Below are positions 8,095 to 53,774 of a stretch of 58,600 nucleotides of DNA, piece after piece; the first letter of the stretch is position 1, and each line of letters opens with the position of its first letter. Position numbers and translations under genes: made by a program. The notes under the pieces were generated by a model. It ran no database searches. It saw nothing but the letters and a program-made list of their open reading frames with translations, and was not told the DNA's origin. The DNA comes from a virus, in IMG/VR virus record IMGVR_UViG_3300030104_000844, positions 1-58,600 of that record; one strand, written 5' to 3'.

Positions 8095-8538
8095 TTATGA
8101 TACTATTGCTTCTGGATCATCAACAACAGCTAGTATTTCGTCATCGTTTAAAAGTCGCATATCACCACCTTCTATTTGAAAACGTGCACCAGCATATCTG
8201 CCAAATATAACCCAATCACCTTTCTTACACCAAGGACCTTCTGGAAACTTAATTGTATCTCCATATGCGTCTGGACCTAATGCAACAACATGTCCTACAA
8301 CTGTTGACAACCTTTCTTTATCAATAGTTTGTCTAGCAAGTTGTATTCCACCTTTAGTTGTAGTAGGTAGTGTGAATGGTAAAATTAAGATACGATACCC
8401 CGTAGGACGTGGTAACTTATCTGCATGAGATTCGTAGTTTTCTGGCGTTATCGTGTTTTCATCAGGCTCTAACTCCTTGACTTTACCTTTACTGCCAAAA
8501 TTATCTACTGTGTTTGGAATAACATTTTTGTTACTCAT
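8095..8538 (-). CDS. groES: GroES-like co-chaperonin
   Basis: The Cpn10 core is clear: 'PTGYRILILPF', then 'GGIQLARQT' in the region of the mobile loop, 'VVGHVVALGPDAYGD', 'CKKGDWVIFGRYAGARF' and the end 'DMRLLNDDEILAVV'. It would cap host GroEL during folding of phage proteins, presumably the capsid protein, as T4 gp31 does. A roughly 45-residue N-terminal extension is unusual. The start at 8538 is set by TGGAGG six bases upstream; the ATG at 8544 abuts that site. It overlaps the upstream gene by eight bases. Confidence 0.85.
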   Translation of the reverse strand: MSNKNVIPNTVDNFGSKGKVKELEPDENTITPENYESHADKLPRPTGYRILILPFTLPTTTKGGIQLARQTIDKERLSTVVGHVVALGPDAYGDTIKFPEGPWCKKGDWVIFGRYAGARFQIEGGDMRLLNDDEILAVVDDPEAIVS

Positions 8539-8728
8539 CTGCATCCTCCATATTAGAATGAATAGTTTGTAGTTCTGCTATTGCAAAACTCAAACCGTTT
8601 ATTTCACCTACAATCCGTTGGTATTGTTCATAGTTTTCAATACCACCTGCTGCAAGCGTTTGCGTGAGAGAGTCTATTCTCGCACGATATTTTTGGAGCA
8701 AATGCTCCAATAGTCTTATATGATCCAC
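8531..8728 (-). CDS. Small helical head-cluster protein
   Basis: The protein has 65 residues and is nearly all helix (LLEHLLQKYRARIDSLTQTL, then NGLSFAIAELQTIHSNM). It resembles small coiled-coil proteins found between portal and capsid genes in marine phages. It overlaps the co-chaperonin gene by eight bases and shares one base with the gene upstream. Function unknown. Confidence 0.6.
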   Translation of the reverse strand: MDHIRLLEHLLQKYRARIDSLTQTLAAGGIENYEQYQRIVGEINGLSFAIAELQTIHSNMEDADE

Positions 8729-19878: not shown

Positions 19879-20259
19879 TCAATCTTTCTTAAATAATCCA
19901 TCCTCCAATTTACCTTGACGGTTTTTTATTTCATCCCAAGCATAGTTGAGACAATCTTCAAACTTCATGCCGTTTTGTGCTGCTAGTATAATCAATACTA
20001 CGGCACAATCACCTATACTATCTTTTAACCCTTGTTCGTCACGATAGGCTACAGCGTGAGCTAGTTCGCCTACTTCTTCCATTAGCTTCAACGTTTGAGC
20101 TTTGGTATCACGATAATACTCTATGTTAGACTCTCCTAGTAAACCACGTTCTTTAGCCCATAGTTCTACTCGTCTATAGTTCCATTTACCACCGTGCCAG
20201 TGATAACCACTATTATCATCTAAATAACCTATTTCGTCTTTTTCATCATAACCTTTCAT
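19879..20259 (-). CDS. mazG: MazG-like nucleotide pyrophosphohydrolase
   Basis: The all-alpha NTP-PPase core is visible: KLMEEVGELAHAV with the EExxE-type metal site around residue 60, then DSIGDCAVVLIILAAQNG carrying the second acidic pair, and a C-terminal 'AWDEIKNRQGK' helix. These enzymes cleave NTPs or dNTPs to NMPs and pyrophosphate; in marine phages MazG has been linked to nucleotide pools and stringent signalling. At 126 residues it is one domain. Overlaps the upstream mini-gene by ATGA. Confidence 0.82.
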   Translation of the reverse strand: MKGYDEKDEIGYLDDNSGYHWHGGKWNYRRVELWAKERGLLGESNIEYYRDTKAQTLKLMEEVGELAHAVAYRDEQGLKDSIGDCAVVLIILAAQNGMKFEDCLNYAWDEIKNRQGKLEDGLFKKD

Positions 20260-26035: not shown

Positions 26036-26380
26036 TTAGTATTTCCAGTCCCATCCGCTATGTGGGACAACTGATTGGTTATTTATACTAGTTTTTACAC
26101 CTTTAGTCTTTAACCATGCATTATATTTAGTAGATATTTGATCAAAATCATCATATGTTTTATTTAACTCGTTCCATTTATTACGTGCAACTTGAACACC
26201 AACATAATAATCACCATCACCGAGTTTACATCTTGTTATAATTTGCCATATACGTTGTTTAGTTAAATCATATTCTGTTGCTAGTTCGAGTAGAGTATTA
26301 TCGTTAAATTTCCATTGCTCAAATATTTTTGTATATTTTTCTTGACTTTCTGCTTTCTTTTGTGGTGTTATACCTCTCAT
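26036..26380 (-). CDS. Helix-turn-helix protein beside DNA polymerase
   Basis: The 114-residue protein contains LELATEYDLTKQRIWQIITR, a sigma-region-4-type helix-turn-helix. The remainder is helical. It overlaps polA by ATGA and ends the DNA-metabolism operon. It could regulate transcription or act with replication; the sequence does not say. The gap 25890-26035 has no gene. Confidence 0.65.
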   Translation of the reverse strand: MRGITPQKKAESQEKYTKIFEQWKFNDNTLLELATEYDLTKQRIWQIITRCKLGDGDYYVGVQVARNKWNELNKTYDDFDQISTKYNAWLKTKGVKTSINNQSVVPHSGWDWKY

Positions 26381-28248
26381 AGAGTTATCTCCTTAACTTC
26401 CCCCCACGATTGACCAAGCTCTGCGTCGACTAATAGAGGTACTGCGATTTTTACACAGTTCTCCATAACCTCTACGACTTTTTTAGCCTGAGCATGATTT
26501 TCAATAGATATATCTACTTCGTCATGTATTTGCAAGTGTGGGACAATGCCTTCCTTCCATAGTTCTATCATAGCTAGTTTAGTCATGTCTGCCGCAGAGC
26601 CTTGTATCAAACGGTTGAGTGCTTTATAAGTAAATGAACGTTTAAGTTCATCGCCATATTTATTAATTGCTTCTTCTTTTGCTAGTGGTGTAGTTCTTTC
26701 AAATTTACTTTCCCATAAATCGAAACGACATCTACGTCCACCAATAGTTTTTATAAATCCTTTTAGATTAGCTATCCGAGTGCATTGATCTTGTAATGCT
26801 TTTATAAACGGAACTTTTTCATGGTACTGTCTAAATAATTTTTCAGCTTCGAATTCATCTAATCCTAATTCATTAATTAGTTTTTCTTTTCCCATTCCGT
26901 AACTTAATCCTAAGTTAATCGTCTTTGCCTGTTTACGTGGTATATTAGCCATATCTGCAACTATTTGATGAAAGTCTGCACTTTCTTCTGTATATTGTTG
27001 TACGGCTTCTTTCGCCCCTACTAAACTCATTTCGTTAGCGTAATGCACTGTTAGTCTTGGCTCTTGTTGAGAATAATCAAAAGCTCCCCACTGACAACCA
27101 TCCTCTGGTATAAACAACGACCTAATTAAATTACCTATTTCTGGATCACGAGCAGGAACTTGTTGTAGATTAGGATTGCTATAACTAAACCTACCACTTA
27201 CTGTACCACCTCTATCATTACGCATAGGGTGAGCTTCAGCGTGTATACGTCCGTTAAATACATGATTTCCTATCATTTTATCTATAAACGTTGTCCTTGC
27301 TTTATTAAGTTTTCTAGCTCTAACAATTAATTTAGGCAACTCATGTTCGTGTCCTTCTAACCACTGCCTTTGAAAACTAGGTGTGCCTTTTTCTGTACGT
27401 GGATACCATAAATCGTTGTTGTCGAAAATATTTTGTAAAGAAGCGTTAGCCCATAGATTTACATCTGTGCCATACTTTCGTTTTATTTCTACCTGTATTA
27501 ATTGTTCTTCTTTAGATAGACGATCACTTATTTCATCTGCTTTATTAGTATCTACCCTCACTCCTCTCCATCTCATTTCAATAAGTAGAGGTATAAGGCT
27601 AAGTTCCATCTCTAAGACTTTTTCTAAACTTTGTTCTTTAATTTGTTGTTCTAAAGTATGCCATAGCTTATACGTAAGTCTAGCGTCTTGTTCTCCATAC
27701 GGTCCAACAAATTTTGCAGGTAAACGATACATCTCACTTTTAGGATTACAGCCATAAGCCAGTGCAGCGTCTTGTAATAAACTTTCATCTTTAGTTTCAT
27801 CACACCAATCTTTACCAAGATTGTCTAACGAATATGAAAATCTATTTTCGTCTAAAAGAGGAGCGGCAATGATAGTGTCCAGAACTTGTCCGTGAATATC
27901 AATGCCCTCCCTTTTTAACCACCCAACATCATATAAAGCATTGTGGAAGATTACTTTACGTTGAGTAGATAAAACGTTTTTGAGCCACCGTAAAACCATA
28001 CCCTCATCTAAATTACCACCACCCTCATGTCTAATAGGAAAATAACCCACCCAGTCTTGAGTAGCTACACCTACACCGACAATATAACCTTTTCCTGTAG
28101 CCCATCCTGGACCATTAATAGTAAGGTCAGGATCATATGTTTCAAGGTCGATTGCTACTGTTTCATCAGGATTAAATTGAGGAAACACATCAGGAACTGA
28201 CCAAGAACTTTTAGGTGTAAATAAAGGCATAGGCGTTTGTAAAATCAC
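26377..28248 (-). CDS. polA: DNA polymerase, family A, with 3'-5' exonuclease
   Basis: The 623-residue replicase has exonuclease DLE (D34, E36), HNALYDVGWL and the EQDARLTYKLW motif, but no 5'-3' exonuclease. Polymerase motif A is GAFDYSQQEPR (D391), motif B RKQAKTINLGLSYG, motif C LQIHDEVDIS (H575, D576). At the position of E. coli Phe762 it has Leu446. Work on marine viral PolA linked Leu762 with slower or temperate-style replication (from memory). The start is a GTG at 28248 overlapping the upstream gene; an ATG lies at 28230. Confidence 0.93.
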   Translation of the reverse strand: MILQTPMPLFTPKSSWSVPDVFPQFNPDETVAIDLETYDPDLTINGPGWATGKGYIVGVGVATQDWVGYFPIRHEGGGNLDEGMVLRWLKNVLSTQRKVIFHNALYDVGWLKREGIDIHGQVLDTIIAAPLLDENRFSYSLDNLGKDWCDETKDESLLQDAALAYGCNPKSEMYRLPAKFVGPYGEQDARLTYKLWHTLEQQIKEQSLEKVLEMELSLIPLLIEMRWRGVRVDTNKADEISDRLSKEEQLIQVEIKRKYGTDVNLWANASLQNIFDNNDLWYPRTEKGTPSFQRQWLEGHEHELPKLIVRARKLNKARTTFIDKMIGNHVFNGRIHAEAHPMRNDRGGTVSGRFSYSNPNLQQVPARDPEIGNLIRSLFIPEDGCQWGAFDYSQQEPRLTVHYANEMSLVGAKEAVQQYTEESADFHQIVADMANIPRKQAKTINLGLSYGMGKEKLINELGLDEFEAEKLFRQYHEKVPFIKALQDQCTRIANLKGFIKTIGGRRCRFDLWESKFERTTPLAKEEAINKYGDELKRSFTYKALNRLIQGSAADMTKLAMIELWKEGIVPHLQIHDEVDISIENHAQAKKVVEVMENCVKIAVPLLVDAELGQSWGEVKEITL

Positions 28249-28550
28249 TTTTTCTTTTTAGTCTTTTTCTTAGGTGCTTTACCACCTTCCCATGCTTCAT
28301 TAAAATCTGGAGTAGACTTATCGTCTGCTTTATATCTGCCTTTTTTAGTTCTTGCACGTTTAGGTTTCACAGGCACTATTGTTTCTACTTTACCTGCTGC
28401 TTTTGTAATAGGCTCTAGTTCTATCGTAGCCTCTTCAACTGCTGCGTCTAAGACTTCTGCCTCTTTTAAAAGTTTTTTTGCTTTTGCTACTTCTGCTTCA
28501 CCTTCCATTTGAGGTGTGAAAAAGTCTACTATCTTTTTAAACCAACTCAT
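28245..28550 (-). CDS. Small basic hypothetical protein beside polA
   Basis: The 101-residue protein starts MSWFKKIVDFFTPQMEGEAE, has an Ala/Glu helix (EAEVAKAKKLLKEAEVLDAA) and ends with Lys-rich repeats (KPKRARTKKGRYK, KKKTKKKK). It could contact DNA or the polymerase. It overlaps its neighbours by four bases on each side. No family known. Confidence 0.55.
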   Translation of the reverse strand: MSWFKKIVDFFTPQMEGEAEVAKAKKLLKEAEVLDAAVEEATIELEPITKAAGKVETIVPVKPKRARTKKGRYKADDKSTPDFNEAWEGGKAPKKKTKKKK

Positions 28551-28897
28551 GATATTTCCTCCTGTTCGTTAGTATTGTCTCCTTCGTTTTCGTAAGGAAT
28601 ATTTTCTTCTATTTCTTGTGCTAGTATTTCTTGTTCTACAAGTAATAAGTATCTACGCAAGTCTCGTATATCGTCTAGTAGACCTGCTTCGCCACTATAG
28701 ACGGCACCTGCTTCGAAGACATCCCACCCGTGTTTTTTCGACTGGTGTTCTATCCTATCGAACTTACGGGCTAACATCATAAAAGCACCGACACCGCCAC
28801 GTCTTTTCCAAGAATCGCCGTAAGATTGTTCAGCTCGTTGTAGAGCTTGTAAATCTTGTTGTGCGACCTCTTTCATAAGATTAAAATCTGCACTCAT
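28547..28897 (-). CDS. Nucleotide-modification-associated (DUF1599/Nmad1-like) protein
   Basis: The 116-residue helical protein contains AEQSYGDSWKRRGGVGAFMM, ARKFDRIEHQ and DLRRYLLLVEQE. The 'YGDSW...RKxDRI...DLxxYLLL' pattern resembles the family called nucleotide modification associated domain 1, which I recall near thymidylate synthase genes of phages with altered bases. It is directly downstream of the TS-like gene. The family link is tentative. Confidence 0.5.
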   Translation of the reverse strand: MSADFNLMKEVAQQDLQALQRAEQSYGDSWKRRGGVGAFMMLARKFDRIEHQSKKHGWDVFEAGAVYSGEAGLLDDIRDLRRYLLLVEQEILAQEIEENIPYENEGDNTNEQEEIS

Positions 28898-28898
28898 A

Positions 28899-29933
28899 TT
28901 ATTCTCCTTTTTCCGCTAGTTTATTTTTACGCTCTTCTCGTGTGCGGAGCCAACTAAGACAAGCGTCTTTCCAATCTTCTGGAACTATTTTGTTACAATG
29001 TTCGTAAGCCTCTGCATACTTACCTGTTTTATATAGGTAGTATGTGTGAGCCATAGGAACTGCAATATCTCTATAACATGGGTTTACCCAATTATTTGCT
29101 CCTACAATATCAGCAGGATGATAATTAAAAAACCTTTCATGCTCAAAATCTAAACAATCATGTTCTATAAATAAATCACTGGGTTTGTAATTATAAAGCG
29201 TATCGTATGGGTTTGCTGCTGATCTAATAGCGTATGCGTCTAAAGATAAATGTTTTACTCTATCCCACACTTCATTCAAATAAACATGAAAACTGTCGCT
29301 TACTTGTCTATAAACACCAACAGGCACACCAAGTCTGTGTGCTATAAGTTCTTGCAAAACTGACATATGTACCACGTTAGCACCATACGCACCCCATAAC
29401 ATATCGTTAGACCTATTACATACTGTCATATTTAGAACACCATCTCTGATTTTAAAATAGATATTCGTATTACATGGCACGTCTTTACTTACTCTAGCTA
29501 AATCTTTATTAGCGTCCCACATTTGTAATACTGCACGTCTATCATCGGGATTTTCTTTTAATAGTTTTACAACCATATCTAGTTGATCTTTATGAAAATA
29601 CTGTCGCCACCTATAGCCATAAGCACCCCATAAAGTTTCACCATCATCTGAGAAATTAGACATACTTGCTACATAGTAAGTCAATGATTCTAAATCGTTT
29701 CTACCTGCCAACATCCACATACTTTCTATAAAATGGAAAAAAGGATTAGCGTCTCTTTCAGGTATTAAACAAACTCTTTCTGTAGGTCTAAGGTATGTCG
29801 TTGTAACAGGCTCTACCGCCTCTAAAGTTTTACCGTTTCTACTTTCTTGTTCTCTATAATTTATTTCATCTTTAAATAAATCAATGCCTCTAAGTATAGC
29901 ACCATTTACATTTCTTGCTGTTATAGTTTTCAT
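28899..29933 (-). CDS. Thymidylate synthase / deoxypyrimidine hydroxymethylase homologue
   Basis: The 344-residue protein has the TS fold landmarks: FIESMWMLAG (E70), WGAYGYRWRQ, DDRRAVLQMW with substrate Arg, the active-site Cys154 in DVPCNTN, WGAYGANVVHM (N186) and VSDSFHVYLN. Asn186 at the dUMP/dCMP-selecting position favours dUMP. PCN instead of the usual PCH after Cys is unusual. It could make dTMP or 5-hydroxymethyl-dUMP. Neighbours 28547-28897 and 30081-30977 make the second option attractive. Overlaps its upstream gene by ATGA. Confidence 0.78.
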   Translation of the reverse strand: MKTITARNVNGAILRGIDLFKDEINYREQESRNGKTLEAVEPVTTTYLRPTERVCLIPERDANPFFHFIESMWMLAGRNDLESLTYYVASMSNFSDDGETLWGAYGYRWRQYFHKDQLDMVVKLLKENPDDRRAVLQMWDANKDLARVSKDVPCNTNIYFKIRDGVLNMTVCNRSNDMLWGAYGANVVHMSVLQELIAHRLGVPVGVYRQVSDSFHVYLNEVWDRVKHLSLDAYAIRSAANPYDTLYNYKPSDLFIEHDCLDFEHERFFNYHPADIVGANNWVNPCYRDIAVPMAHTYYLYKTGKYAEAYEHCNKIVPEDWKDACLSWLRTREERKNKLAEKGE

Positions 29934-30079
29934 ACTTTCTCCTTTGGTAAATAAACTATGACAAAAGAGTCACAGTTTGGACAACTTAAATTGGTTTCCA
30001 TCATATATTCTGAATCTTCATCAGAAATATCATGGTCTCCACCCCATATTAATTTTGTATTACAATGCCAACAATTCAT
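29930..30079 (-). CDS. 49-residue zinc-finger mini-protein
   Basis: Frame starts MNCWHCNTKLIWGGDHD and has LSCPNCDSFV, giving two CxxC pairs for one zinc. A 'CWHC...GGDHD...CPNCD' mini-protein is common in marine T4-like and podo-type phages as I remember. It overlaps the TS-like gene start. Function unknown. Confidence 0.68.
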   Translation of the reverse strand: MNCWHCNTKLIWGGDHDISDEDSEYMMETNLSCPNCDSFVIVYLPKEKV

Positions 30080-30080
30080 A

Positions 30081-30977
30081 TTATCCCTCTATTAATGGTA
30101 ATGTGTCGTCGTGTTTATAGACTGACCTCGTTCTGCCTTCCCCTTTATATATACGTGAGTATTTATCAAACTCACATAGACCACCTTCTATCTCTCTAAG
30201 TTCATAGGGTAAATCGTTCCTTTTTGTTATATGTGAGGGTAATCGTTCTTTAGCTATAGCGTATAAAGCTGTCATCTCACTACACCAATCATGACTACGT
30301 TGACAAAAATCTAATGGTCTACCTGTTAATCTATTTAGCCCTCGCATTGCTCCTGGACCTGCATTAGCCCATGTTAGTTTATCTTTAGCTTCATCTAATA
30401 AATAAGTAAACCGTAAATCTGTTACAACTTCATACGCCATAAATGGTCCCATGTATGGGTATTCTCTCAATAAATCCCAACAATACTTTAGTGTGCTTGT
30501 CTTGTTCTCTGCTGCTTCGTCTAGTTTTTCTAGCATATAGTTTTTACGTTCCCACATATGAGTAATACACTCTGCCACTCCTGTAACTTTATCCATACCA
30601 TTAGGAGACTTTACTATATATGCTCCTGTTACCCATTTATCTTGTTTAGTTATTTCTTTTATAGCTTTCTTCCTATCCCAATTTGTAAGTAAGTTATGTT
30701 CTATAAGAGTTCTTCCTGTAGGTATCCAATTAAACCATCTAAAAATTACAGTAGCCATAAGAACATCTGTATTTTCTCGCATAGGCTCTCTAATATGTTT
30801 TTTAAACCACCTAGTAGTCCTATCTTCTTCACGAAAAACCTGACAGAACTTATACTGTTGTAGTATCGGATCATCAGTCCAAGGAGCGGGAAGGTTAGAG
30901 ACTTCCTTCTGTAGTCTGATGTTTTCTCTTTCTACTTGCCAATACAAGTATCTATCAAGTTCTTCTTGAATAAACAT
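30081..30977 (-). CDS. 5-hmdU DNA kinase helical domain / HhH glycosylase-like protein
   Basis: The N-terminal text (YWQVERENIRLQKE, then PWTDDPILQQYKFCQVFRE, DRTTRWF) closely fits the helical domain of 5-hmdU DNA kinases and the related thymine pyrophosphorylase-like clade. Later parts are WIPTGRTL, 'NAGPGAMRGLNRLTGRP' and 'CEFDKYSRIYKGEGRTR', also typical. There is no P-loop, so this is the DNA-facing helical part without a kinase. It probably acts on modified thymines in the phage genome. It lies between the methyltransferase and the zinc mini-protein. Confidence 0.68.
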   Translation of the reverse strand: MFIQEELDRYLYWQVERENIRLQKEVSNLPAPWTDDPILQQYKFCQVFREEDRTTRWFKKHIREPMRENTDVLMATVIFRWFNWIPTGRTLIEHNLLTNWDRKKAIKEITKQDKWVTGAYIVKSPNGMDKVTGVAECITHMWERKNYMLEKLDEAAENKTSTLKYCWDLLREYPYMGPFMAYEVVTDLRFTYLLDEAKDKLTWANAGPGAMRGLNRLTGRPLDFCQRSHDWCSEMTALYAIAKERLPSHITKRNDLPYELREIEGGLCEFDKYSRIYKGEGRTRSVYKHDDTLPLIEG

Positions 30978-31825
30978 TACTTTTTACGTAATACCCATGA
31001 ACAGTTATTTGCATACTCTGGATAAAACGTAGCAGCAACTACTCTTAAAAACTGTTTACCGTATCTATTTGTTAACATATTAAACTGTTCTGGTGTCCAA
31101 CCATTAGGATAAGCTTCGTTTAGTTTCATAGCTTTCTTTAAATTAGGTAATTGTATAAACGTTCCTGTTACAGCAACTATATCGAAGTTTCTTTCTAATT
31201 CTTCTTTTAGTTCCTGAAAGCCCCACTCATATACGTGATCTTCAGGTAGTTTATCGTTAGACCCGTCATGGTTAGGTGTAGACACGAATCCAAGTGCATT
31301 AGGTCTCATAACCCTAGCTACATCATCTAACCATGCAGGAACAAACTCTCTACCCATATGTTCAATAACTTCCGTAGACCAAAAGAAATCTATACTTTCG
31401 TCTTCTAGTTTAAACACAGGGTCAACTGTTAAATCTTGTATTACTATTTGTGGATTAAAGTTCTTAAACCATGTAGAGTCCATAAGATCACCACCTGCGT
31501 TCGACCAATAAGGTAATTCTTTTTCACAAGCAGGGTCTATATCTGTTCCGTAGAACGACCGTATAACATCAGACTTTTTAATTACATAAGCCTTGTATAA
31601 GTTTCTAAGAGCCCAACACTCCCCACAACCAACTTCAAAAGTATCTAGCGGTCTACCTAGTTTTCTAGACTCCTCTATACACATAGAAGCAATCTTGTCG
31701 AAACGACTCATATGAGCTATCTCATCTGGTCGCCAATTAGCTAATACACCCGCACTAGCTATATCCATTCTTGTATTTTTACTATCGTTTTCATTAACGA
31801 GTAGTTTCTTTCTAATTGAAGACAT
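30977..31825 (-). CDS. SAM-dependent methyltransferase (class I)
   Basis: The 282-residue protein has the SAM-binding TFEVGCGECWALRNL loop (about residue 62), FYGTDIDPAC, FFWSTEVIEHMG and MRPNALGFVSTPNHDG, a class I methyltransferase related to SAM-binding methyltransferase_11/23 types. No DPPY/NPPY motif is seen, so it is not a classic adenine DNA methylase. Substrate unknown; a modified nucleobase, a small molecule or a cap are possible. First gene after the promoter at 31849-31878. Confidence 0.78.
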   Translation of the reverse strand: MSSIRKKLLVNENDSKNTRMDIASAGVLANWRPDEIAHMSRFDKIASMCIEESRKLGRPLDTFEVGCGECWALRNLYKAYVIKKSDVIRSFYGTDIDPACEKELPYWSNAGGDLMDSTWFKNFNPQIVIQDLTVDPVFKLEDESIDFFWSTEVIEHMGREFVPAWLDDVARVMRPNALGFVSTPNHDGSNDKLPEDHVYEWGFQELKEELERNFDIVAVTGTFIQLPNLKKAMKLNEAYPNGWTPEQFNMLTNRYGKQFLRVVAATFYPEYANNCSWVLRKK

Positions 31826-31883: not shown

Positions 31884-33380
31884 TTATATCTGAAAACAGC
31901 GTGTTGTTTTTGGCTCTATTAGATATAAGTTTTCTTTAGCTCTAGTCATACCGACATAGAACACCCTATTTTCATCATCAGGATTTTTCTGATAATTTTT
32001 ATAAACTCTTGTAGTTATATCAGTAAGTAATACAACGTTAGTTGCTTCACCACCTTTTGCTGCATGTATAGTAGATAGCCGTATTCTAGGTTGTTTTGTA
32101 ATTTTTTCTCCTCTACGTAACATAGCCCGTATATAACTTATTTCTTTTGGTCTAAGTAATGTAAATACGTCATACCAATGACCCGTTGGTAAATCTGAGA
32201 ACTGTTCTTGTAATGTATCTATGCTGGGTTTTATAGAAGCCTCTAATAAATCTAACTTTTTATAATCTTTAACCTTTATATATTTCAATATATTCGCACA
32301 CTCTGCTAAAGATATTTGTGCTCCTTTTCTTAATTTTTCCCAATTTATAACAGCTCTTACTTTGCTTTCTGGTAAACTTGTTTTACCTTTAACTTCAAAA
32401 AACCATCCCTCGTTTCTACAATACTCATCTACTTCTTCTAGTAAGTAGTTTGTTCTAGCTAATACTAACCAGTCGCCTTGTTCCATATTTAACAATGTTA
32501 TACTTGGCTCCCATCTTACAAGACCTTGTTGTTTTCTTGGGTGCCACGTTTTATGTATTCGTGAACTAACTTGTGATATACATTTCTTAGCATACTCATG
32601 TACGCTTGCGGGTATTCTATAAGATTGTTCTAGTACCATAGCGTTTTTAGAATTACTTATAAGATAGTCAACGTCAGCACCCGCCCATTTATAGATAGCT
32701 TGATCATCGTCTCCTGCAACATAAATACGTTTTGCTCTTTCTGCTAGTTTACGCACCACCGCCCACTGTATCGGTGATAAATCTTGTGCCTCATCAACAA
32801 ACATAACATCTAGTTTTGGTATAGTTCCTTCGTGTAAAAACTTATGTAACATATCAGTATAGTCAACTAATAATTTATCTTCTTTAAATAACTTTAATCC
32901 TCTTGCATAACGTTCTAATTCAAACCACCCAACAGCTTCGTCTACATCGTGCCATTGTTCTTCTAGCGACACATACCTCATCCTTGCTAAATTTTCTATA
33001 AACGCTAACCTGTCGTCGTGAGTCATAGCGAATAAATGACCTTCTTCTGACTGTGTTCTACCTGTTAGTTTTAAATTTAGTTTCTCGTTTAGTTCTGCTA
33101 TATCTTCTCTACCCATTACATTTTCTCTAGTTAATCCTAGTTGTCTAAACGCTAATGAGTGTAGTGTTCTAAAATAAGGTAATTCTTTATTAGTTATACC
33201 AAACTTTGTCATAGCTCTTTCTTTACCTTCATTTACTGCTTTACGTGTAAAAGTAAAAAAACCTATGTTTGTAGGCTCCGTGCCTGATTCTAATTCTTTT
33301 TCTATAAGCTCTAATAGTGTTGTAGTTTTTCCCGTTCCAGGAGGTCCAAGAATAACTTGTGTATGGTTTGGTAAAGTCAT
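31884..33380 (-). CDS. SF1 DNA helicase (UvrD/Rep-like)
   Basis: The 498-residue enzyme has Walker A LGPPGTGKTT near the N-terminus, IGFFTFTRKAV (motif Ia), MFVDEAQDLSP (motif II), AGDDDQAIYKWAGA (motif III), a motif IV Arg in LEQSYRIP and the C-terminal STIHAAKGGEATNVV and VFYVGMTRAKENLYL. It unwinds duplex DNA 3'-5' in replication or recombination. It is about two-thirds of UvrD length. It overlaps the AlkB-like gene by four bases. Confidence 0.88.
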   Translation of the reverse strand: MTLPNHTQVILGPPGTGKTTTLLELIEKELESGTEPTNIGFFTFTRKAVNEGKERAMTKFGITNKELPYFRTLHSLAFRQLGLTRENVMGREDIAELNEKLNLKLTGRTQSEEGHLFAMTHDDRLAFIENLARMRYVSLEEQWHDVDEAVGWFELERYARGLKLFKEDKLLVDYTDMLHKFLHEGTIPKLDVMFVDEAQDLSPIQWAVVRKLAERAKRIYVAGDDDQAIYKWAGADVDYLISNSKNAMVLEQSYRIPASVHEYAKKCISQVSSRIHKTWHPRKQQGLVRWEPSITLLNMEQGDWLVLARTNYLLEEVDEYCRNEGWFFEVKGKTSLPESKVRAVINWEKLRKGAQISLAECANILKYIKVKDYKKLDLLEASIKPSIDTLQEQFSDLPTGHWYDVFTLLRPKEISYIRAMLRRGEKITKQPRIRLSTIHAAKGGEATNVVLLTDITTRVYKNYQKNPDDENRVFYVGMTRAKENLYLIEPKTTRCFQI

Positions 33381-33964
33381 ATACCTGTTCTAAAAGTTAA
33401 ATTTATTCTCTCTCCTGCACCGATCATATCAGGAACTGCGTGAGTAGATTTCATCTGGCTATGACCATCAAAAATTAATACATCGCCATGATTTAAAATA
33501 TAAGTATCTTCTGTCTTTATAAAATTTTCTGATACTGTGTCTATCTCACTTGTGTTTGTTTTTACTTTAACTGCGTTTTGATAATGTCTCCATGTGAAAA
33601 CTCTAGGTGCTCCAAAAGATATAGAAACAACTAAATCGTCTAGTGTTGGAACAGTATCTGAGTGATGTGGTATACCTTTGCCGTTTGTGCCGTAGTAGCC
33701 ACATAAACAAAAAGAAAATTCAACATCCATGTTATATTCTTTTGACAACATATACTCTGTTAAAGTTTTTATTCTAAAAATAAGGTGATTATCTGACCAC
33801 GGACGTCCTTTATAATTTTTACCTGCGTATGCGAATGTATTGCCGTATCCTGCTGTTTTTCTACCTAAAACTTTATGACCTTTAAACTCTCTTATAGTTG
33901 GCTCGTCCCATTCAGTAATTATTGGGTTTTGGTTTTTAAAATACTCTGGTTTATAATCTATCAT
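33377..33964 (-). CDS. 2-oxoglutarate/Fe(II) dioxygenase, AlkB-like
   Basis: The 195-residue protein has the metal site HSD (H101, D103) in GIPHHSDTVPTL and H175 in MKSTHAVP, plus GERINLTFR with Arg186, Asn188 and Arg192 for 2-oxoglutarate. The GHGDVLIFDG-like strand (actual NHGDVLIFDG) before H175 is the AlkB pattern. It would repair or edit alkylated bases, or hydroxylate a base in phage DNA. It lies in the replication operon, between helicase and prim-pol. Confidence 0.8.
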   Translation of the reverse strand: MIDYKPEYFKNQNPIITEWDEPTIREFKGHKVLGRKTAGYGNTFAYAGKNYKGRPWSDNHLIFRIKTLTEYMLSKEYNMDVEFSFCLCGYYGTNGKGIPHHSDTVPTLDDLVVSISFGAPRVFTWRHYQNAVKVKTNTSEIDTVSENFIKTEDTYILNHGDVLIFDGHSQMKSTHAVPDMIGAGERINLTFRTGI

Positions 33965-39317: not shown

Positions 39318-40901
39318 TTATCTCCTTGGCTTGAATGCATTTTGGAATATTCTTGTTGTCATTATATCCCCTTGTTGACTTTGCGGCAACCGCATAATCC
39401 CTTTATTTAAACGCCCACCAAATTTTTTCTCTAAAGGCTCACTAAACAAATAACTCATATCATCTCTTGGGTTTTCAGGCTGTTGAAAAAATATAGGACC
39501 TCCTGGACGAAAAGGTGGGTCTGGTGGTAGTTTATTATGTGATACAACACCATCAACCAAATACGTATGCGTTGATGAAGTAGTAAAGTTATATACTTTT
39601 ACAAAAGCTTCTGAATTTTCTAATTTAGTTACTTCTTCTACACCTTCTTTAGTAATTAATTTATCCCCTACTTGTAAATCTTTTACTTCAATTCCGTACT
39701 CATTGTACACAGTATTTGATAATTTAGGATTATTAGATTTCCAACCTTCTTCCGTTAAAAATGCATGTGCATCTGTAGCTGTTATTCTATCATTTATAGT
39801 CCATAAGTTTCTATTATCTTTTGGTATATCATGTACATAAGAAACTACATCAGAAGCATTGTCTTGTGCTAAAACTATATCACCAACTTTTATATTTTCA
39901 ATAGCTTTTTGCGTACCATTAGCCATATCAACTTTTGTTCCTCTTACAAAACACATAATCGGTGGCTCTGGTCTTGGTGGTCTTGGAGGAAATACAGGAG
40001 TTGGTGGTTTCGGAGGCATAGGAGTTGGTTCTGGTCTTCCATATTTTCCTGGAGCTCTTCCAAAGCTGTCGATAGAAAGTCCTGACGGAAGTTTAAATGC
40101 AGGCACACCACTTTCAAAAGATGTTGGTCGCTCGTAATAACGTCTTTTTTCTTTGCCTACAATAGGACCGCCTCCTGGAGGTGGTGGTGGAGGTGGCGGC
40201 GGTGTTGTCGGTGGCGGCTCAACAGGAGGTGGTGTCGGCTCAGGTGGTGTAAAAACTGGGGGCTCAACTCCTGGAGGTGGTGGCACAGGTCCTCCGTAAT
40301 AAGGTGGTGGTCTATATCCTGGAGGTGGTGTTGGAGTAGGTCCAACAGGAGGCTCTATAGGTGGCTGAAATATTGGATCAAATGGATCTACTGGACCCGC
40401 TCCAGGATCAAGACTAGGACCACCAATAGATGGTGGTGGCTCAGGTTTTTCTGATACAGGCGGGTCAAAAATAGGTACATAAGGGTTTTCTATAGGAGCG
40501 TATGGTGGTGGCATAAATTCTTCAGGAGGTATAAAAGGGGTAGGCTCAATAGGTCCTAGATCATCTGGTGGTGGTATAAATTCTTCGGGAGGTATAAAAG
40601 GTGTAGGCTCAATAGGTCCTAGATCATCTATCGGATTAAAAGGCACACTAAATTCATTAGGCATAGGAGATACTATCATGTCACTTGGGAGTTCTTCAAC
40701 TAAAGGGGATTGCATAAACATAGGGTTATCAGAAAAACCCCCAGTAGACATAAAATCGTTTTCTATTTCTCTAACACGGTTATCTTTAAAATCAGCTACG
40801 TCTGCTTCGTACTGATCTTTTGCTTTATTTCTAGATATATTAGCGTCTCGCCTAGCGTTTGCTAATGAAAGGATACCGTTTCTATTATTTAATAACATCA
40901 T
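39318..40901 (-). CDS. Proline-rich virion-cluster protein with intein-like Hint domain
   Basis: Residues 1-90 are mixed, 92-315 are extremely Pro-rich, including a 21-residue tandem repeat, then a Hint domain runs from Cys317 (MCFVRGTKVDM) to His455-Asn456 (VDGVVSHN). The Hint has GDIVLA, a TATDAHAFL block and a final THTYLVDG strand. The residue after Asn is Lys457, not Cys/Ser/Thr, so splicing is not expected, but self-cleavage at either end is possible, as in bacterial intein-like domains. The C-terminal 70 residues are hydrophilic with a KKFGGRL motif. A virion appendage is inferred from context. Confidence 0.72.
   Translation of the reverse strand: MMLLNNRNGILSLANARRDANISRNKAKDQYEADVADFKDNRVREIENDFMSTGGFSDNPMFMQSPLVEELPSDMIVSPMPNEFSVPFNPIDDLGPIEPTPFIPPEEFIPPPDDLGPIEPTPFIPPEEFMPPPYAPIENPYVPIFDPPVSEKPEPPPSIGGPSLDPGAGPVDPFDPIFQPPIEPPVGPTPTPPPGYRPPPYYGGPVPPPPGVEPPVFTPPEPTPPPVEPPPTTPPPPPPPPPGGGPIVGKEKRRYYERPTSFESGVPAFKLPSGLSIDSFGRAPGKYGRPEPTPMPPKPPTPVFPPRPPRPEPPIMCFVRGTKVDMANGTQKAIENIKVGDIVLAQDNASDVVSYVHDIPKDNRNLWTINDRITATDAHAFLTEEGWKSNNPKLSNTVYNEYGIEVKDLQVGDKLITKEGVEEVTKLENSEAFVKVYNFTTSSTHTYLVDGVVSHNKLPPDPPFRPGGPIFFQQPENPRDDMSYLFSEPLEKKFGGRLNKGIMRLPQSQQGDIMTTRIFQNAFKPRR
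40503..40628 (-). repeat. Two 63-bp tandem repeats in the Pro-rich region
   Basis: Units 40566-40628 and 40503-40565 encode a nearly identical 21-residue block (DDLGPIEPTPFIPPEEF plus IPPP or MPPP). The frame is kept by the 63-base unit length. Confidence 0.85.
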
Positions 40902-48662: not shown

Positions 48663-50399
48663 TCAAACTGTATAGATTTTTAAAGGTTTTTCTTTACCTT
48701 TTACTTTAATAGGTTTTAATGATTGAAGCGTATATCCACAATATTTTTCTGTTTCTTCGCCTATAAGTATATCTACACCTGCTTCTTTTGTAGCTGATTC
48801 TAACCTTGCTGCCGTATTTACAGCGTCGCCGATAGCCGAATAATCAAACCTAGTATCACTACCCATATTACCTATAACAGCTTCTCCAGTATTAACACCA
48901 ACACCTATAGCTACGCCGATATCTGCTGCTATTATGTTTTCTTGTATCTCTTTCGCACAATCTACAGCTATATTCTCATGATGTTGTAAATCAAGTGGTG
49001 CATTGAATATAGCCATCATTGCATCACCTATATATTTATCAACCATACCTCCATATTTTTTCACTGCATCAGACTGTATAGTAAGTGCTTTATTCATTAT
49101 TTTTGTCACTTCTTCAGGCTCTAACGTTTCTGATAGTGCAGTAAAGCCTCGAACATCGGTAAATAGAAAAGTACAACGTCTTTTTTCACCACCTAATTTC
49201 AGTAAGTCTGGGTCTTGTTGTAAACGTTTTACCTGTCTAGGGTCTAGATAATGTTCAAATTGTTTTTTAATTTGTAGCCGTAACTTATATTGTTCTCTAA
49301 ATCGTAGATAAAACGCTACGCTTGCAGTTATAAAACCACTTACTAAAGCCCATGTAACGTCTATTAAAAAACCTTGACCTATCGTATAAACGCCGTAAAC
49401 ACCCGTAGCCGTTAGTAAAGCTAAAGTAATACCTAAGCCCCAATAAATACCTAAGCGTACTATAGCGACCCATATAAGGCTTATTAAAACTAAAACTATA
49501 CTAAGCTCTACAACTAAAGCGTAATCAGGTATATACGGGCTATTTTGTATAAGAATACTTTCTGCAAGTGCTGTTTGTATTTTATGAGGCTCAACAAGTC
49601 CAACAGGCGTAGCGATTTGCGGCATTACACCATTAGCTGTAACACCAACAATAACAAATTTACCGTTAACATTCATTTCTTGTAAATCTGTTTGTGGTGT
49701 ATTTACCCAACTAATCCATTTACGACCTAAACTATCTGTTTTAATTGGTGGTATACCTTGTATGGATATTTCTTCTATACCGTTTTCGTTAGTTTTTATA
49801 ATATAAGTTTTTATACCAAACAATGATTTATATATTTGTGTACCAAAACTAGGTATCCATTCGTTGTTAGGTGTTTTAACTAATAAAGGCATTCTTCTTA
49901 CTAGCTGATCAACATCAGTAGGAGCTATGGCTAAACCCTGCAGAACTTCATCGTAAGATGAATGGTTAGCCTTAACTCCTGAACTAATAATACCACCTAC
50001 ACTATTACCTAGAACAACTGTTCCAGGAGAAGCAGGATAAATACCTTTACCGTCTTCGAACATCGCAATAACAGAAGGAGCATAACCTAACGACCTAGCT
50101 AGATCATTATCGCCACCAAATCTATCGGCTTGTGGAAAAGATATAGCCCAACCTACACCTATTGCACCTTTAGCTAAAAGCTCCATGTTTATATCAGCTA
50201 AACGCTTACGAGGAAAAGGATAACCACCTTCACGCTCTACATCTTCTTCGGTAATATTTAGAATTACAAAATTACCACTAGGCTCTGGTGTTTGTATAAA
50301 CGCATCATAAGTTTTTAATTTAAGTATTTCTAACGGTGTGGTTTGGAATATTAGAGGAAGTGTTAATAAAACAGTAAGTACTAAATATATTTTTTTCAT
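48663..50399 (-). CDS. CHASE2-domain class III adenylate cyclase
   Basis: The 578-residue protein has an N-terminal membrane segment (residues 1-20), an extracytoplasmic CHASE2 domain (about 25-290, containing VILNITEEDV and 'GVGWAISFPQ'), three membrane helices (292-365) and a cytoplasmic cyclase domain. All catalytic residues are present: metal Asp415 (FLFTDVRGF) and Asp459 (DKYIGDAMMA), base-selecting Lys455 and Asp519 (RFDYSAIGD), and Asn528/Arg532 (NTAARLE). Lys plus Asp favours ATP, so cAMP is the expected product. CHASE2 senses periplasmic signals in bacteria. Such a complete enzyme is exceptional in a phage. Overlaps the FecR gene by ATGA. Confidence 0.9.
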   Translation of the reverse strand: MKKIYLVLTVLLTLPLIFQTTPLEILKLKTYDAFIQTPEPSGNFVILNITEEDVEREGGYPFPRKRLADINMELLAKGAIGVGWAISFPQADRFGGDNDLARSLGYAPSVIAMFEDGKGIYPASPGTVVLGNSVGGIISSGVKANHSSYDEVLQGLAIAPTDVDQLVRRMPLLVKTPNNEWIPSFGTQIYKSLFGIKTYIIKTNENGIEEISIQGIPPIKTDSLGRKWISWVNTPQTDLQEMNVNGKFVIVGVTANGVMPQIATPVGLVEPHKIQTALAESILIQNSPYIPDYALVVELSIVLVLISLIWVAIVRLGIYWGLGITLALLTATGVYGVYTIGQGFLIDVTWALVSGFITASVAFYLRFREQYKLRLQIKKQFEHYLDPRQVKRLQQDPDLLKLGGEKRRCTFLFTDVRGFTALSETLEPEEVTKIMNKALTIQSDAVKKYGGMVDKYIGDAMMAIFNAPLDLQHHENIAVDCAKEIQENIIAADIGVAIGVGVNTGEAVIGNMGSDTRFDYSAIGDAVNTAARLESATKEAGVDILIGEETEKYCGYTLQSLKPIKVKGKEKPLKIYTV

Positions 50400-51589
50400 C
50401 CGCTACCTTGTGTAATAGTTATAACAGAGTCGCTACCGCCGTTTATCTTAATTATATTAGATACTCCGTCTTGTATCAAAATAAGCGTATAAGCATTACC
50501 AGAATTTAAATCAAGCTGTAAATTTTGGTTTACTTTTCTTTGTAAACTAATTACTTGACCTGCAATTATTGTTGTTATTTGTGTTTGAGTATCTTGTCCA
50601 AAATTAGTACCTGTAAGATTTACACTAGTTGCTAAACCTAGTTGTTCTTCTTCTTCCTCTACTTGTAAAGCGTCTATAACATCAAGTAAATCCTCTAAAA
50701 AATTTACGTCTAAATAGTTTATATCTAGTTCTGTAAATTCTAAATTACTTTCTTCTAGAAAATCTTCAGCTAGATAATCAATATCTAAATCATTAAAATC
50801 TAAAACACTATCGTTTTGTGTTGTGCTTGTTTCTTCTTCTTGTAAAGTTTCTTCTCTAGGCGGTGTAACTATTAACATATTATCTATAATATCTAAAGAT
50901 AAATCTAAAATTACTGGTTTTGTTGGTGCTGCTTCAAAAACACTTACTGTTGTAGCTTGATAAGGTCTATTAAGTAAAACGGAGCCCATAGCCGTTACTA
51001 CTTCTATTTCTCCACTAGAAAGACCGAATGCATCAGGTAACAAGATTATCAAAGAACGACCTAGTTCATCTACTGTCGCAGTAAAATCAGTGCCACGAAT
51101 CGCAATGTTTGCAGTAGGAGTACTGAGTTTTATGTTTTGTTTATCTATACGGCTTAAATTACCTGTTATAAACCTAGCTGTACCTAAAGCAAAATTAAGG
51201 GACATTTTAGATTTACTAGGATCAGGGTCGTATATATATTCGTCTATTACAAGTTGTGAATGTTCTGTAAGCCTTACAACAGAATCATCAAGGAATTTAA
51301 TACCTAAACGACCATTATTCGTTATGGCTTGATCATTACTTTGTATTGCAAAATCTAACGCTGCAGTATACGGCTGATCACGAACTATTTGAGCGTTACC
51401 CGATAATTCAGCAATATCGCCTATATCAACAACTGACGCTTGTACCGCCGTCGTCTTGAACCACACAGACAGTACCATTAGAACCAGTAGATGTGATTTT
51501 AAGCCAATCAAGTGCCAAAGTTGAAGATTGCGTAATATCGAATGTTCTGCTATTACCTGTTTGGTCAAGATAGAAATAACCTCCCGCAT
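50396..51589 (-). CDS. FecR-domain periplasmic protein
   Basis: The FecR core is clear: AELSGNAQIVRDQP, GRLGIKFLDDSVVRL, 'SHSQLVIDEY'-type strand (TEHSQLVIDEYIYDP), FALGTARFITGNLS, and LSTPTANIAIRGTDF with the 'TPxAxxxVRGT' signature. A signal peptide ends TTAVQA before SVVDIGD. The C-terminal half is acidic low complexity and beta-rich. In bacteria FecR proteins of this type sit beside CHASE2 cyclases, as here. Start uncertain: ATG 51589 has GAAGGAAG upstream but overlaps the curlin-like gene by 164 bases; TTG 51511 and ATG 51478 are alternatives. Confidence 0.82.
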   Translation of the reverse strand: MREVISILTKQVIAEHSILRNLQLWHLIGLKSHLLVLMVLSVWFKTTAVQASVVDIGDIAELSGNAQIVRDQPYTAALDFAIQSNDQAITNNGRLGIKFLDDSVVRLTEHSQLVIDEYIYDPDPSKSKMSLNFALGTARFITGNLSRIDKQNIKLSTPTANIAIRGTDFTATVDELGRSLIILLPDAFGLSSGEIEVVTAMGSVLLNRPYQATTVSVFEAAPTKPVILDLSLDIIDNMLIVTPPREETLQEEETSTTQNDSVLDFNDLDIDYLAEDFLEESNLEFTELDINYLDVNFLEDLLDVIDALQVEEEEEQLGLATSVNLTGTNFGQDTQTQITTIIAGQVISLQRKVNQNLQLDLNSGNAYTLILIQDGVSNIIKINGGSDSVITITQGSG

Positions 51590-52130
51590 AACCACTTCCT
51601 TCAAAATTTACTGTGTTGCTATCTCCATCTACGTCAACGTAACTTGTACCTGTATCGTAATTAACATCAAAATCGAAAGTGTTGCTATCGCCTTGAATAA
51701 TCCAATCTAGGTCTAAAGTACTTGCTAACGCTGTAGTAGCTAAATCTAAAGTAAATGTATTTGAACTACCTGTTACATCTACATTTAAATCAGAGTTATC
51801 TGCACCGTAGGTATTTGTAGGATCAACTTGTATAGTAAAAGTATTGCTATCACCATCAAACTCAAAAAAGCCTGTCAAACTATCTGCTAAAATATCACCT
51901 AGAAATTTGTTGCTATCACCTATTTGGTTTATATCTAAAGTTAAAGAATCACCATCTAAATCTAAAGCTGTTAAAGTTCCAGCTACAGAATTCAGACCAC
52001 CAATAATATTAGATGAACCAAGTTGTTCTAAGTCTATATTAGCAGTTGCTCCTGATTGATCGACATATATTTCATTATCGGCTACAATCAATAAAGGTAA
52101 TACTAAAATAAAACTAATTAATCTATTCAT
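51426..52130 (-). CDS. Secreted curlin-like repeat protein (putative curli subunit)
   Basis: The start MNRLISFILVLPLLIVADNE is a signal peptide. About eight repeats follow, centred on G-D/S-S-N-x-F/I (LEQLGSSNI, INQIGDSNKF, FDGDSNTFTI, VTGSSNTFTL, IIQGDSNTFDF, VDGDSNTVNF, LDQTGNSRTF, STGSNGTV). Curlin repeats have the Q-x-G-x-x-N core, which these share. Two Cys (CVVQ and VSC) close the protein. It lies directly after csgG and is the likely exported fibre subunit. Start set at 52130, behind TTGGGAG; overlaps csgG by eight bases. Confidence 0.72.
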   Translation of the reverse strand: MNRLISFILVLPLLIVADNEIYVDQSGATANIDLEQLGSSNIIGGLNSVAGTLTALDLDGDSLTLDINQIGDSNKFLGDILADSLTGFFEFDGDSNTFTIQVDPTNTYGADNSDLNVDVTGSSNTFTLDLATTALASTLDLDWIIQGDSNTFDFDVNYDTGTSYVDVDGDSNTVNFEGSGYAGGYFYLDQTGNSRTFDITQSSTLALDWLKITSTGSNGTVCVVQDDGGTSVSC

Positions 52131-53443: not shown

Positions 53444-53774
53444 CTCTATCCGCCTTTGCAATTTTATTACTATCTATTAAGTTTGGTACACCTAATATTG
53501 TTTTTATTAAAGTATCTTGTCTAATAATTTCATTATCTAAACTACGTACTCTATCTATAAGAGCTACTAAAATACCATGTTGTGAATCTAATTTAGTTCC
53601 TAACCTTTCTTCTATCGCACTAATTTGTTGTGCTACTTTTTCATCTACGATATCTAATTTTGTTTCCATACCATCTACTATACGAATTACAAGTTTATAA
53701 ATAAACCAACCTAAACCTATAGCAGCAGCTATTGGAAAACCAACTTCCTGAATAAGGGTTACAACACTTTCCAC
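53424..53774 (-). CDS. Membrane-anchored coiled-coil protein, possible holin or spanin-like
   Basis: The 116-residue protein has one N-terminal membrane helix (VGFPIAAAIGLGWFIYKLVI) followed by a long coiled coil (EKVAQQISAIEERLGTKLDS). This layout is common in marine phages beside lysis or tail genes. It lies between the thermonuclease and csgF. It may act in lysis, or anchor at the envelope; not resolved. Confidence 0.6.
   Translation of the reverse strand: MESVVTLIQEVGFPIAAAIGLGWFIYKLVIRIVDGMETKLDIVDEKVAQQISAIEERLGTKLDSQHGILVALIDRVRSLDNEIIRQDTLIKTILGVPNLIDSNKIAKADRDDQRKD

What the first reader, a model, noticed from the sequence alone, without database searches (positions are those of the whole stretch)
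28547..31825. Probable DNA base-modification cluster
A TS-family enzyme with an altered active-site context (PCN in place of PCH), a protein matching the helical domain of 5-hmdU kinases, a DUF1599/Nmad1-like protein and a methyltransferase are contiguous. An AlkB-like dioxygenase is nearby. 5-hmdU-based hypermodification is known in several phages. Here no P-loop kinase is visible, so a variant chemistry is possible.
Basis: partly seen in the sequence, partly recalled or inferred. Interest (0 to 1): 0.75.

Follow-up and report, generated by a model that had tools for sequence, protein, structure and literature searches.

The report
Pelagiphage thymine-modification cassette with O-methyltransferase
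A marine phage, probably infecting SAR11-type bacteria, carries a gene set that appears to replace thymine in its DNA with hydroxymethyluracil and then cap it with a methyl group, where known relatives phosphorylate it and add amino acids; if true, this would be a DNA base not described before, to my knowledge.

Summary
Five adjacent genes on the minus strand encode a SAM methyltransferase, an HMUDK_hel (aGPT-PPlase1) protein, a TS-family pyrimidine hydroxymethylase, a Nmad1-like protein and a small protein, and lead into PolA. The order matches the thymidine-hypermodification cassettes of Pseudomonas phage M6, Ab18 and Pam3, except that the slot of their P-loop 5-hmdU kinase holds the methyltransferase. 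PCN is the rule in that family and not a novelty. TS plus aGPT-PPlase1 near polA was already reported in HTVC023P-type pelagiphages (PMC9599517); the methyltransferase was not mentioned there. New evidence: (1) MTase-hel-TS-Nmad1 is invariant in 73/73 fully visible IMG/VR loci. (2) Across 155 distinct hel proteins the partner is the MTase (74), the kinase (50) or a TAGT glycosyltransferase (12), never two together. (3) More distant members of the same MTase family lie beside dCMP-type hydroxymethylases in phage AXL3 and in most other viruses sampled. (4) The MTase carries the ExxEH...H signature of HEN1/UbiG-type O-methyltransferases. (5) No kinase was found in the window or in 11 relatives. 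Best explanation: dUMP is converted to 5hmdU, incorporated into DNA and O-methylated with the help of hel, giving 5-methoxymethyl-dU. The chemistry is inferred and untested.

The parts
30977..31825 (-). Class I SAM methyltransferase (282 aa) in the slot that the 5-hmdU kinase occupies in M6-type phages; predicted O-methyltransferase of the 5-hydroxymethyl group. Putative metal ligands E152 (31370-31372), E155 (31361-31363), H156 (31358-31360), H197 (31235-31237)
   Evidence: Pfam Methyltransf_11/23; AlphaFold2 model pLDDT 80, class I MTase fold; invariant TEVIEHM and DHxYEW; residue coordinates; UbiG and Hen1 as weak best family matches; homologous to AXL3-type MTases
30081..30977 (-). HMUDK_hel / aGPT-PPlase1 protein (298 aa), all-helical; predicted 5hmdU-DNA-binding partner of the capping enzyme
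   Evidence: PF18723 E=2.1e-45; model pLDDT 90; weak fold matches to HhH DNA glycosylases and to the 5-PmdU glycinyltransferase PUGT; start overlaps the stop of the MTase gene
29930..30079 (-). 49-aa CxxC...CxxC mini-ORF between hel and TS (possible zinc ribbon); not a core part
   Evidence: read from sequence; present in only 4 of 115 related loci
28899..29933 (-). TS-family dUMP 5-hydroxymethylase (344 aa): PCN with Cys154 (29472-29474), Asn186 (29376-29378) = uracil specificity, Ser175 and the Arg at position 132/133 = deoxyribose
   Evidence: PF00303 and PHROG 5131; best solved relative MilA CMP 5-hydroxymethylase E=2.6e-27 against 5.9e-15 for true TS; residue rules from PMC5175136
28547..28897 (-). 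Nmad1-like protein (116 aa), role unknown, always next to TS in this clade
   Evidence: phmmer 2.5e-26 to Pam3_54; 73 of 73 loci; no PF07659 match
28245..28550 (-). Lysine-rich 101-aa protein between Nmad1 and PolA, role unknown
   Evidence: ORF; in most but not all of the related loci
26377..28248 (-). Family A DNA polymerase, predicted to incorporate 5hmdUTP
   Evidence: PF00476 E=3.3e-62; same place in M6, Ab18 and Pam3
33377..33964 (-). AlkB-like 2OG-Fe(II) dioxygenase; accessory, not core
   Evidence: PF13532 E=1.7e-17; present in 85 of 103 MT-type loci
31884..33380 (-). UvrD-like helicase upstream of the cassette (replication neighbour, not part of the modification set)
   Evidence: PF00580 E=4.1e-31

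Best explanation
This is a thymidine-hypermodification cassette of an HTVC023P-type pelagiphage whose capping step has changed from phosphorylation to methylation. Steps: (1) the TS-family enzyme converts dUMP to 5-hydroxymethyl-dUMP (supported by residues and relatives). (2) After conversion to the triphosphate, PolA places 5hmdU in DNA at thymine positions (inferred from M6/SPO1-type biology). (3) The HMUDK_hel protein binds or flips 5hmdU in DNA and presents it to the methyltransferase encoded by the overlapping gene (inferred from gene pairing). (4) The methyltransferase uses SAM and a metal held by E152, E155, H156 and H197 to methylate the hydroxyl, giving 5-(methoxymethyl)-2'-deoxyuridine (inferred). 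The capped base would block host restriction enzymes and 5hmU glycosylases (inferred).
For: Synteny: M6, Ab18 and Pam3 have kinase-hel-(Nmad5)-TS-...-PolA; here it is MTase-hel-TS-Nmad1-PolA. The order is invariant in 73 of 73 related loci, and the MTase and hel genes overlap in 103 of 111. Mutual exclusion: the hel partner is MTase 74, kinase 50 or TAGT glycosyltransferase 12 among 155 distinct hel proteins, never two together. Kinases and TAGT act on a 5-hydroxymethyl group, so the third partner probably does too. Profile searches find no kinase in the window or 11 long relatives while finding it in the controls M6, Ab18 and L174, and no MTase in M6, Ab18 or Pam3. Substrate: the TS residues predict dUMP and hydroxymethylation. 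The same MTase family (E 1e-12 to 1e-20, shared C-terminal extension) lies beside dCMP-type hydroxymethylases in AXL3, PW916, MW202510, MW202621, in the AXL3-like IMG/VR loci and in 69 of 80 further viral contigs, 11 others showing no TS, several of them cut off near the MTase. The feature shared by 5hmC and 5hmU is the CH2OH group. Chemistry: ExxEH plus a downstream H in 136 of 139 members and no DNA-MTase DPPY or PCQ motifs. These are the metal ligands of HEN1 (E796, E799, H800, H860; PMC10781085). UbiG and Hen1, both O-methyltransferases, are among the commonest weak family matches. Biology: AXL3 DNA resists 35 of 37 restriction enzymes and is cut only by two whose sites are purely A/T (PMC7504290).
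Against: No product has been measured; O-methylation is inferred from motifs and partners. Overall MTase similarity to Hen1/UbiG is weak (E 0.05 and 1.8e-4 at best), and the fold search lists N-, C- and O-methyltransferases alike. In AXL3-type cassettes no hel is present, so the MTase there may act on the free nucleotide; the same could hold here. The glycosylase-like reading of hel is weak (best E 0.26, TM-score 0.37). The record has no end repeats and may be incomplete, though 11 relatives of 58-68 kb lack the kinase too.
Confidence: 0.55

Rival explanations
1. The phage DNA contains 5hmdU and the methyltransferase acts in the same pathway, but at the nucleotide level (on 5hmdUMP or its triphosphate) or on a later, unknown adduct on the hydroxymethyl group, with hel doing separate chemistry of its own.
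For: AXL3-type cassettes have the MTase next to an NTP-pyrophosphohydrolase and a dNMP kinase and no hel; the 5hmC carbamoyltransferase of PMC8670742 also works on the free triphosphate. The function of aGPT-PPlase1 is not settled in the papers I could read.
Against: In the window's clade the MTase gene overlaps hel in nearly every locus, and hel pairs with post-replicative enzymes elsewhere.
Confidence: 0.22
2. The M6-type pathway (5-phosphomethyl-dU, then amino-acid adduct) operates with an unrecognised or host-supplied kinase, and the MTase decorates the adduct.
For: hel is named after the 5-hmdU kinase pathway, and this pathway is known in M6 and ViI (PMC6449724).
Against: No kinase, aGPT-PPlase2/AADT, radical SAM or PLP enzyme was found in the window; among all hel loci kinase and MTase never occur together.
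Confidence: 0.07
3. The methyltransferase is an ordinary DNA or small-molecule methyltransferase that lies next to the hydroxymethylase by chance or common descent, and virion DNA carries plain 5hmdU as in SPO1-like phages.
For: Class I MTases are common in phages, and in the window's clade the linkage is inherited from one origin.
Against: The family is linked to pyrimidine hydroxymethylases in unrelated viruses of both dUMP and dCMP type; its 38 weak relatives in cellular genomes are mostly not (37 of 38 without TS); no DNA-MTase motifs.
Confidence: 0.1
4. The TS homologue is a plain thymidylate synthase serving dTMP supply and there is no DNA modification.
For: PF00303 membership and Asn186, which is compatible with dUMP.
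Against: Closest solved relative is a 5-hydroxymethylase by 12 orders of magnitude in E-value; the PCH histidine of true TS is absent in the whole family; strict linkage with hel.
Confidence: 0.03

Closest known systems
Pseudomonas phage M6 / Ab18 (PaMx11-type) / Pseudanabaena phage Pam3 thymidine-hypermodification cassettes
   Same: Same gene order hel-TS...PolA; TS 43-45% and hel 35-44% identical; PCN and GAN motifs in TS
   Different: P-loop 5-hmdU kinase, aGPT-PPlase2 amino-acid transferase, radical SAM/PLP or FAD/acetyltransferase genes absent; a methyltransferase stands in the kinase slot
HTVC023P-type pelagiphages, clades V, VIII and IX (PMC9599517)
   Same: TS and aG/PT-PPlase1 near polA, curli T8SS genes with FecR and adenylate cyclase; PolA up to 54% identical to cultured or sorted members
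   Different: That paper does not mention the methyltransferase, the missing kinase or an O-methylated product
Stenotrophomonas phage AXL3-type cassette (AXL3, PW916, MW202510, MW202621)
   Same: Same methyltransferase family next to a TS-family hydroxymethylase
   Different: Hydroxymethylase has Asp (dCMP type) and PCT; cassette has NTP-PPase, dNMP kinase and dCMP deaminase, and no hel
Microbacterium phage Morrigan-type cassette (hel + TS + TAGT glycosyltransferase)
   Same: hel and TS paired with a single capping enzyme and no 5-hmdU kinase
   Different: The capping enzyme is a TET-associated glycosyltransferase (PF20691)
HEN1 / UbiG(COQ3) O-methyltransferases
   Same: ExxEH plus downstream His metal-site pattern
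   Different: Overall sequence similarity is marginal; substrates and partner domains differ

Membership tests
M6-type thymidine hypermodification pathway | TS-family dUMP hydroxymethylase | tested here: met
   closest to MilA hydroxymethylase; PCN, GAN shared with M6; residue rules
M6-type thymidine hypermodification pathway | aGPT-PPlase1 / HMUDK_hel protein beside TS and PolA | tested here: met
   PF18723 E=2.1e-45; synteny
M6-type thymidine hypermodification pathway | P-loop 5-hmdU DNA kinase | tested here: not met
   PF18748 and kinase profile A5 find none in the window or relatives, with M6, Ab18 and L174 as positive controls
M6-type thymidine hypermodification pathway | aGPT-PPlase2 amino-acid:DNA transferase and tailoring enzymes | tested here: not met
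   phmmer of window ORFs against M6 gp51-gp53, Ab18 09-11 and Pam3 43/46/47: no match at 1e-5
dUMP 5-hydroxymethylase (TS superfamily) | Catalytic Cys, Asn at the base-recognition site, Arg and Ser for deoxyribose | tested here: met
   Cys154, Asn186, Ser175, RR132-133
dUMP 5-hydroxymethylase (TS superfamily) | Makes 5hmdUMP and not dTMP | not testable with these tools
   needs an enzyme assay
HEN1/UbiG-like metal-assisted O-methyltransferase | Four metal ligands E..EH...H | tested here: met
   E152, E155, H156, H197; pattern in 136 of 139 family members; HEN1 ligands from PMC10781085
HEN1/UbiG-like metal-assisted O-methyltransferase | Curated profile cut-off of bacter_Hen1 or UbiG | tested here: not met
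   best E 0.05 (Hen1) and 1.8e-4 (UbiG), far below cut-offs: works like one, not filed as one
DUF1599 (PF07659) | Pfam profile match | tested here: not met
   no match at E<=10 in the window
HTVC023P-type pelagiphage | PolA relationship, replication module order, curli T8SS genes | tested here: met
   PolA hits to 023Pt_psg01, HTVC023P and HTVC027P; gene order of L088-L090; CsgF, CsgG, FecR, cyclase. No PolA tree was built, so the clade number is not assigned

The most novel reading that the evidence does not exclude
A virus-specific family of methyltransferases, with hundreds of members in IMG/VR, O-methylates 5-hydroxymethylpyrimidines, giving two DNA bases not described before to my knowledge: 5-methoxymethyl-dC in AXL3-type phages and 5-methoxymethyl-dU in pelagiphages. 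In the second group HMUDK_hel is a general 5hmdU-presenting module that works with interchangeable caps (kinase, glycosyltransferase or methyltransferase) and is not a kinase or pyrophosphorylase domain.
Probability: 0.45. Interest if true: 0.78.

Novelty: new variant of a known kind. Interest (0 to 1): 0.62.

Why it matters
It predicts a specific DNA base for what looks like a widespread group of ocean viruses, and a sister base for a cultured soil phage (AXL3) whose restriction-resistant DNA is unexplained. A methyl ether would be a very small and chemically inert cap on a 5-hydroxymethylpyrimidine, which matters for restriction evasion, for glycosylase-based defences and for sequencing or labelling methods that rely on a free hydroxyl. 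The partner-swapping of HMUDK_hel (kinase, TAGT, MTase, never two) makes the unsettled role of aGPT-PPlase1 directly testable: one hel protein can be tried with different capping enzymes.

Tried and rejected
PCN as an altered active site: rejected, it is the family norm. Kinase hidden elsewhere in the window: rejected by profile searches with positive controls; the only Walker A ORF of 80 aa or more in the window is the UvrD helicase. Extra 160-aa ORF between UvrD and MTase in many relatives as a possible kinase: it is a Pyr_excise-like pyrimidine-dimer glycosylase (PF03013). AlkB as core enzyme (TET/JBP-like hydroxylation of T): lowered, because it is absent in 18 of 103 loci and the hydroxymethyl group is already supplied by TS. 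DUF1599 assignment: not confirmed. DNA-MTase reading of the methyltransferase: no DPPY or PCQ motifs in 139 members. PDB sequence search gave nothing useful for hel and one generic MTase. The 49-aa CxxC ORF as a core part: rejected, 4 of 115 loci. The two primary papers on the M6/ViI pathway (Lee 2018, Lee 2022) and Iyer 2013 were not held in the library, so their details were taken from citing papers or from memory and marked so.
Full report
What is there. The window is a complete IMG/VR record of 58600 bases with no end repeats. On the minus strand, reading downstream, lie AEP primase, AlkB-like dioxygenase, UvrD-like helicase, methyltransferase (30977-31825), HMUDK_hel (30081-30977), TS homologue (28899-29933), a Nmad1-like protein (28547-28897), a 101-aa protein and DNA polymerase A. 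The record is an HTVC023P-type pelagiphage by its PolA relatives, its replication-gene order (L088-L090) and its curli type VIII secretion genes with FecR and adenylate cyclase, a combination described for several clades of that group in PMC9599517. That paper already reported TS and aG/PT-PPlase1 (= HMUDK_hel) next to polA and called them thymidine hypermodification; it does not mention a methyltransferase.

Comparison with the known pathway. In Pseudomonas phage M6 the order is aGPT-PPlase2, PLP enzyme, radical SAM, P-loop kinase (gp54; PF18748 65 bits), hel (gp55), Nmad5, TS (gp58), HD... PolA. Ab18 and Pam3 are alike. In the window the slot of the kinase next to hel is taken by the methyltransferase, and aGPT-PPlase2, PLP and radical SAM genes are missing. 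A kinase profile from four phages finds M6, Ab18 and L174 at 1e-37 or better and nothing in the window or in 11 relatives of 58-68 kb. The reverse holds too: the window's MTase profile finds nothing in M6, Ab18 or Pam3.

The TS homologue. Its best solved relative is the CMP 5-hydroxymethylase MilA (2.6e-27), ahead of true thymidylate synthases (5.9e-15). PMC5175136 states that Asp at the base-recognition site marks cytosine enzymes and Asn uracil enzymes, and that Arg and Ser mark deoxyribonucleotide substrates. The window has Asn186, Ser175 and Arg at position 132/133, so dUMP is predicted. The residue after the catalytic cysteine is Asn, not the His of true TS; the whole M6/pelagiphage family has PCN, and the dCMP-type group has PCT. 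Position 147 of E. coli TS, the same residue, is one of the two positions that best separate enzymes of modified from unmodified phage contigs in PMC8670742.

Conservation. A scan with the window's hel gave 80 IMG/VR loci, 60-98% identical. In all 73 of them that are visible on both sides the order MTase-hel-TS-Nmad1 is exact. MTase and hel genes overlap in 103 of 111 MT loci, which suggests coupled translation. AlkB is present in 85 of 103.

Partners of hel. Scans with M6, Ab18, Morrigan and a mixed hel profile brought in kinase-type, glycosyltransferase-type and other loci. Across 155 distinct hel proteins the neighbourhood holds the MTase in 74, the kinase in 50 and a TAGT glycosyltransferase (PF20691) in 12; 7 have none of these, 12 are cut off, and none has two. 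On a hel tree the MTase label needs a single change (SH-aLRT 80), while kinase and glycosyltransferase need several. A further marine group (L175, L177, L179-L181) has hel, an FkbM-type methyltransferase, Nmad1, a group-1 glycosyltransferase and TS. The constant is hel plus TS; the variable is an enzyme that caps a hydroxyl. This argues that hel serves recognition or presentation of 5hmdU in DNA. The hel model (pLDDT 90) has only weak fold matches, led by HhH DNA glycosylases and the 5-PmdU glycinyltransferase PUGT; that fits, but is not proof.

The methyltransferase. The window protein finds only five phage records at E<0.01 by tblastn: AXL3 (two entries), PW916, MW202510 and MW202621. All five have it in a cassette with NTP-pyrophosphohydrolase, dNMP kinase, TS-type hydroxymethylase and dCMP deaminase. 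A profile of the window clade matches these at 1e-12 to 1e-20, and the two groups share a C-terminal extension beyond the Rossmann core as well as the ExxEH...H pattern. A scan with the joint profile found 440 viral relatives; of the best 80, 69 have TS within 5 kb, the readable ones with Asp at the base-recognition site; the other 11 show no TS, several of them cut off near the MTase. Cellular genomes gave only 38 weak matches, 37 without TS. MW202510 shares the window's replication genes but carries the dCMP-type cassette (L085), so the family appears with both substrates within one broad phage lineage. The dUMP- and dCMP-type pathways have the CH2OH group in common; hence the prediction of O-methylation.

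Active site. All 139 members have E-V/A-x-E-H and 136 the downstream histidine; none has DNA-MTase motifs. HEN1 binds its metal with E796, E799, H800 and H860 (human E132, E135, H136, H181; PMC10781085). The window has E152, E155, H156 and H197. UbiG/COQ3, another O-methyltransferase family, has the homologous histidine (PMC9774615). Profile scores to Hen1 and UbiG are low, so the protein is not filed as a member of either.

Biological hint. AXL3 DNA resists 35 of 37 restriction enzymes; only two with purely A/T sites cut (PMC7504290). Its authors left the modification open. A capped 5hmC, from the dCMP-type hydroxymethylase and this MTase, would fit; AXL3 also carries a ThyX-type gene for dTMP, leaving its TS homologue free for hydroxymethylation. 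In the window and 11 relatives no ThyX was found.

What is shown and what is inferred. Shown by computation: gene identities, synteny, absence of kinase, mutual exclusion of caps, MTase family link to both hydroxymethylase types, and the metal-site pattern. Inferred: 5hmdU in virion DNA, O-methylation, action on DNA with hel, protection from host nucleases. Literature search found no paper on methoxymethyl pyrimidines in phage DNA, but only open-licence papers could be searched and the primary pathway papers were not held.

Noticed in passing
window 48663-53461 (minus strand): Curli type VIII secretion genes CsgF and CsgG with FecR and a CHASE2-adenylate/guanylate cyclase, as described for HTVC023P-type pelagiphages in PMC9599517.
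   Followed up: partly
window 39318-40901 (minus strand): Proline-rich 527-aa protein with what looks like a HINT/intein-type segment (CFVRGTKVDMANGTQKAIENIKVGDIV...) in its C-terminal half; read by eye only.
   Followed up: no
window 8095-8544 (minus strand): GroES-like Cpn10 co-chaperonin near the capsid genes (PF00166 E=8e-11).
   Followed up: no
window 29930-30079 (minus strand): 49-aa CxxC...CxxC mini-ORF squeezed between hel and TS, found in only 4 of 115 related loci.
   Followed up: partly
L014, L017, L019, L026 and many others, between UvrD and the MTase: A 160-aa Pyr_excise-like (PF03013) protein sits just upstream of the MTase in many relatives but not in the window.
   Followed up: partly
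L175, L177, L179, L180, L181: Related marine phages with hel - FkbM methyltransferase - Nmad1-like - group-1 glycosyltransferase - TS and no kinase or window-type MTase: possibly a glycosylated and then O-methylated hmU.
   Followed up: partly
L276-L355 and L093-L114: Large viral group with MTase - NTP-PPase - dNMP kinase - dCMP-type hydroxymethylase - dCMP deaminase, predicted to carry capped 5hmC.
   Followed up: partly
L170, L178, L196, L208, L232: hel loci with SPASM-type radical SAM-like proteins and glycosyltransferase-like proteins, some with kinase: further untested combinations.
   Followed up: no
window 19879-20259 (minus strand): MazG-like NTP pyrophosphohydrolase (PF03819 E=2.5e-7), a candidate for dTTP/dUTP pool control.
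   Followed up: no
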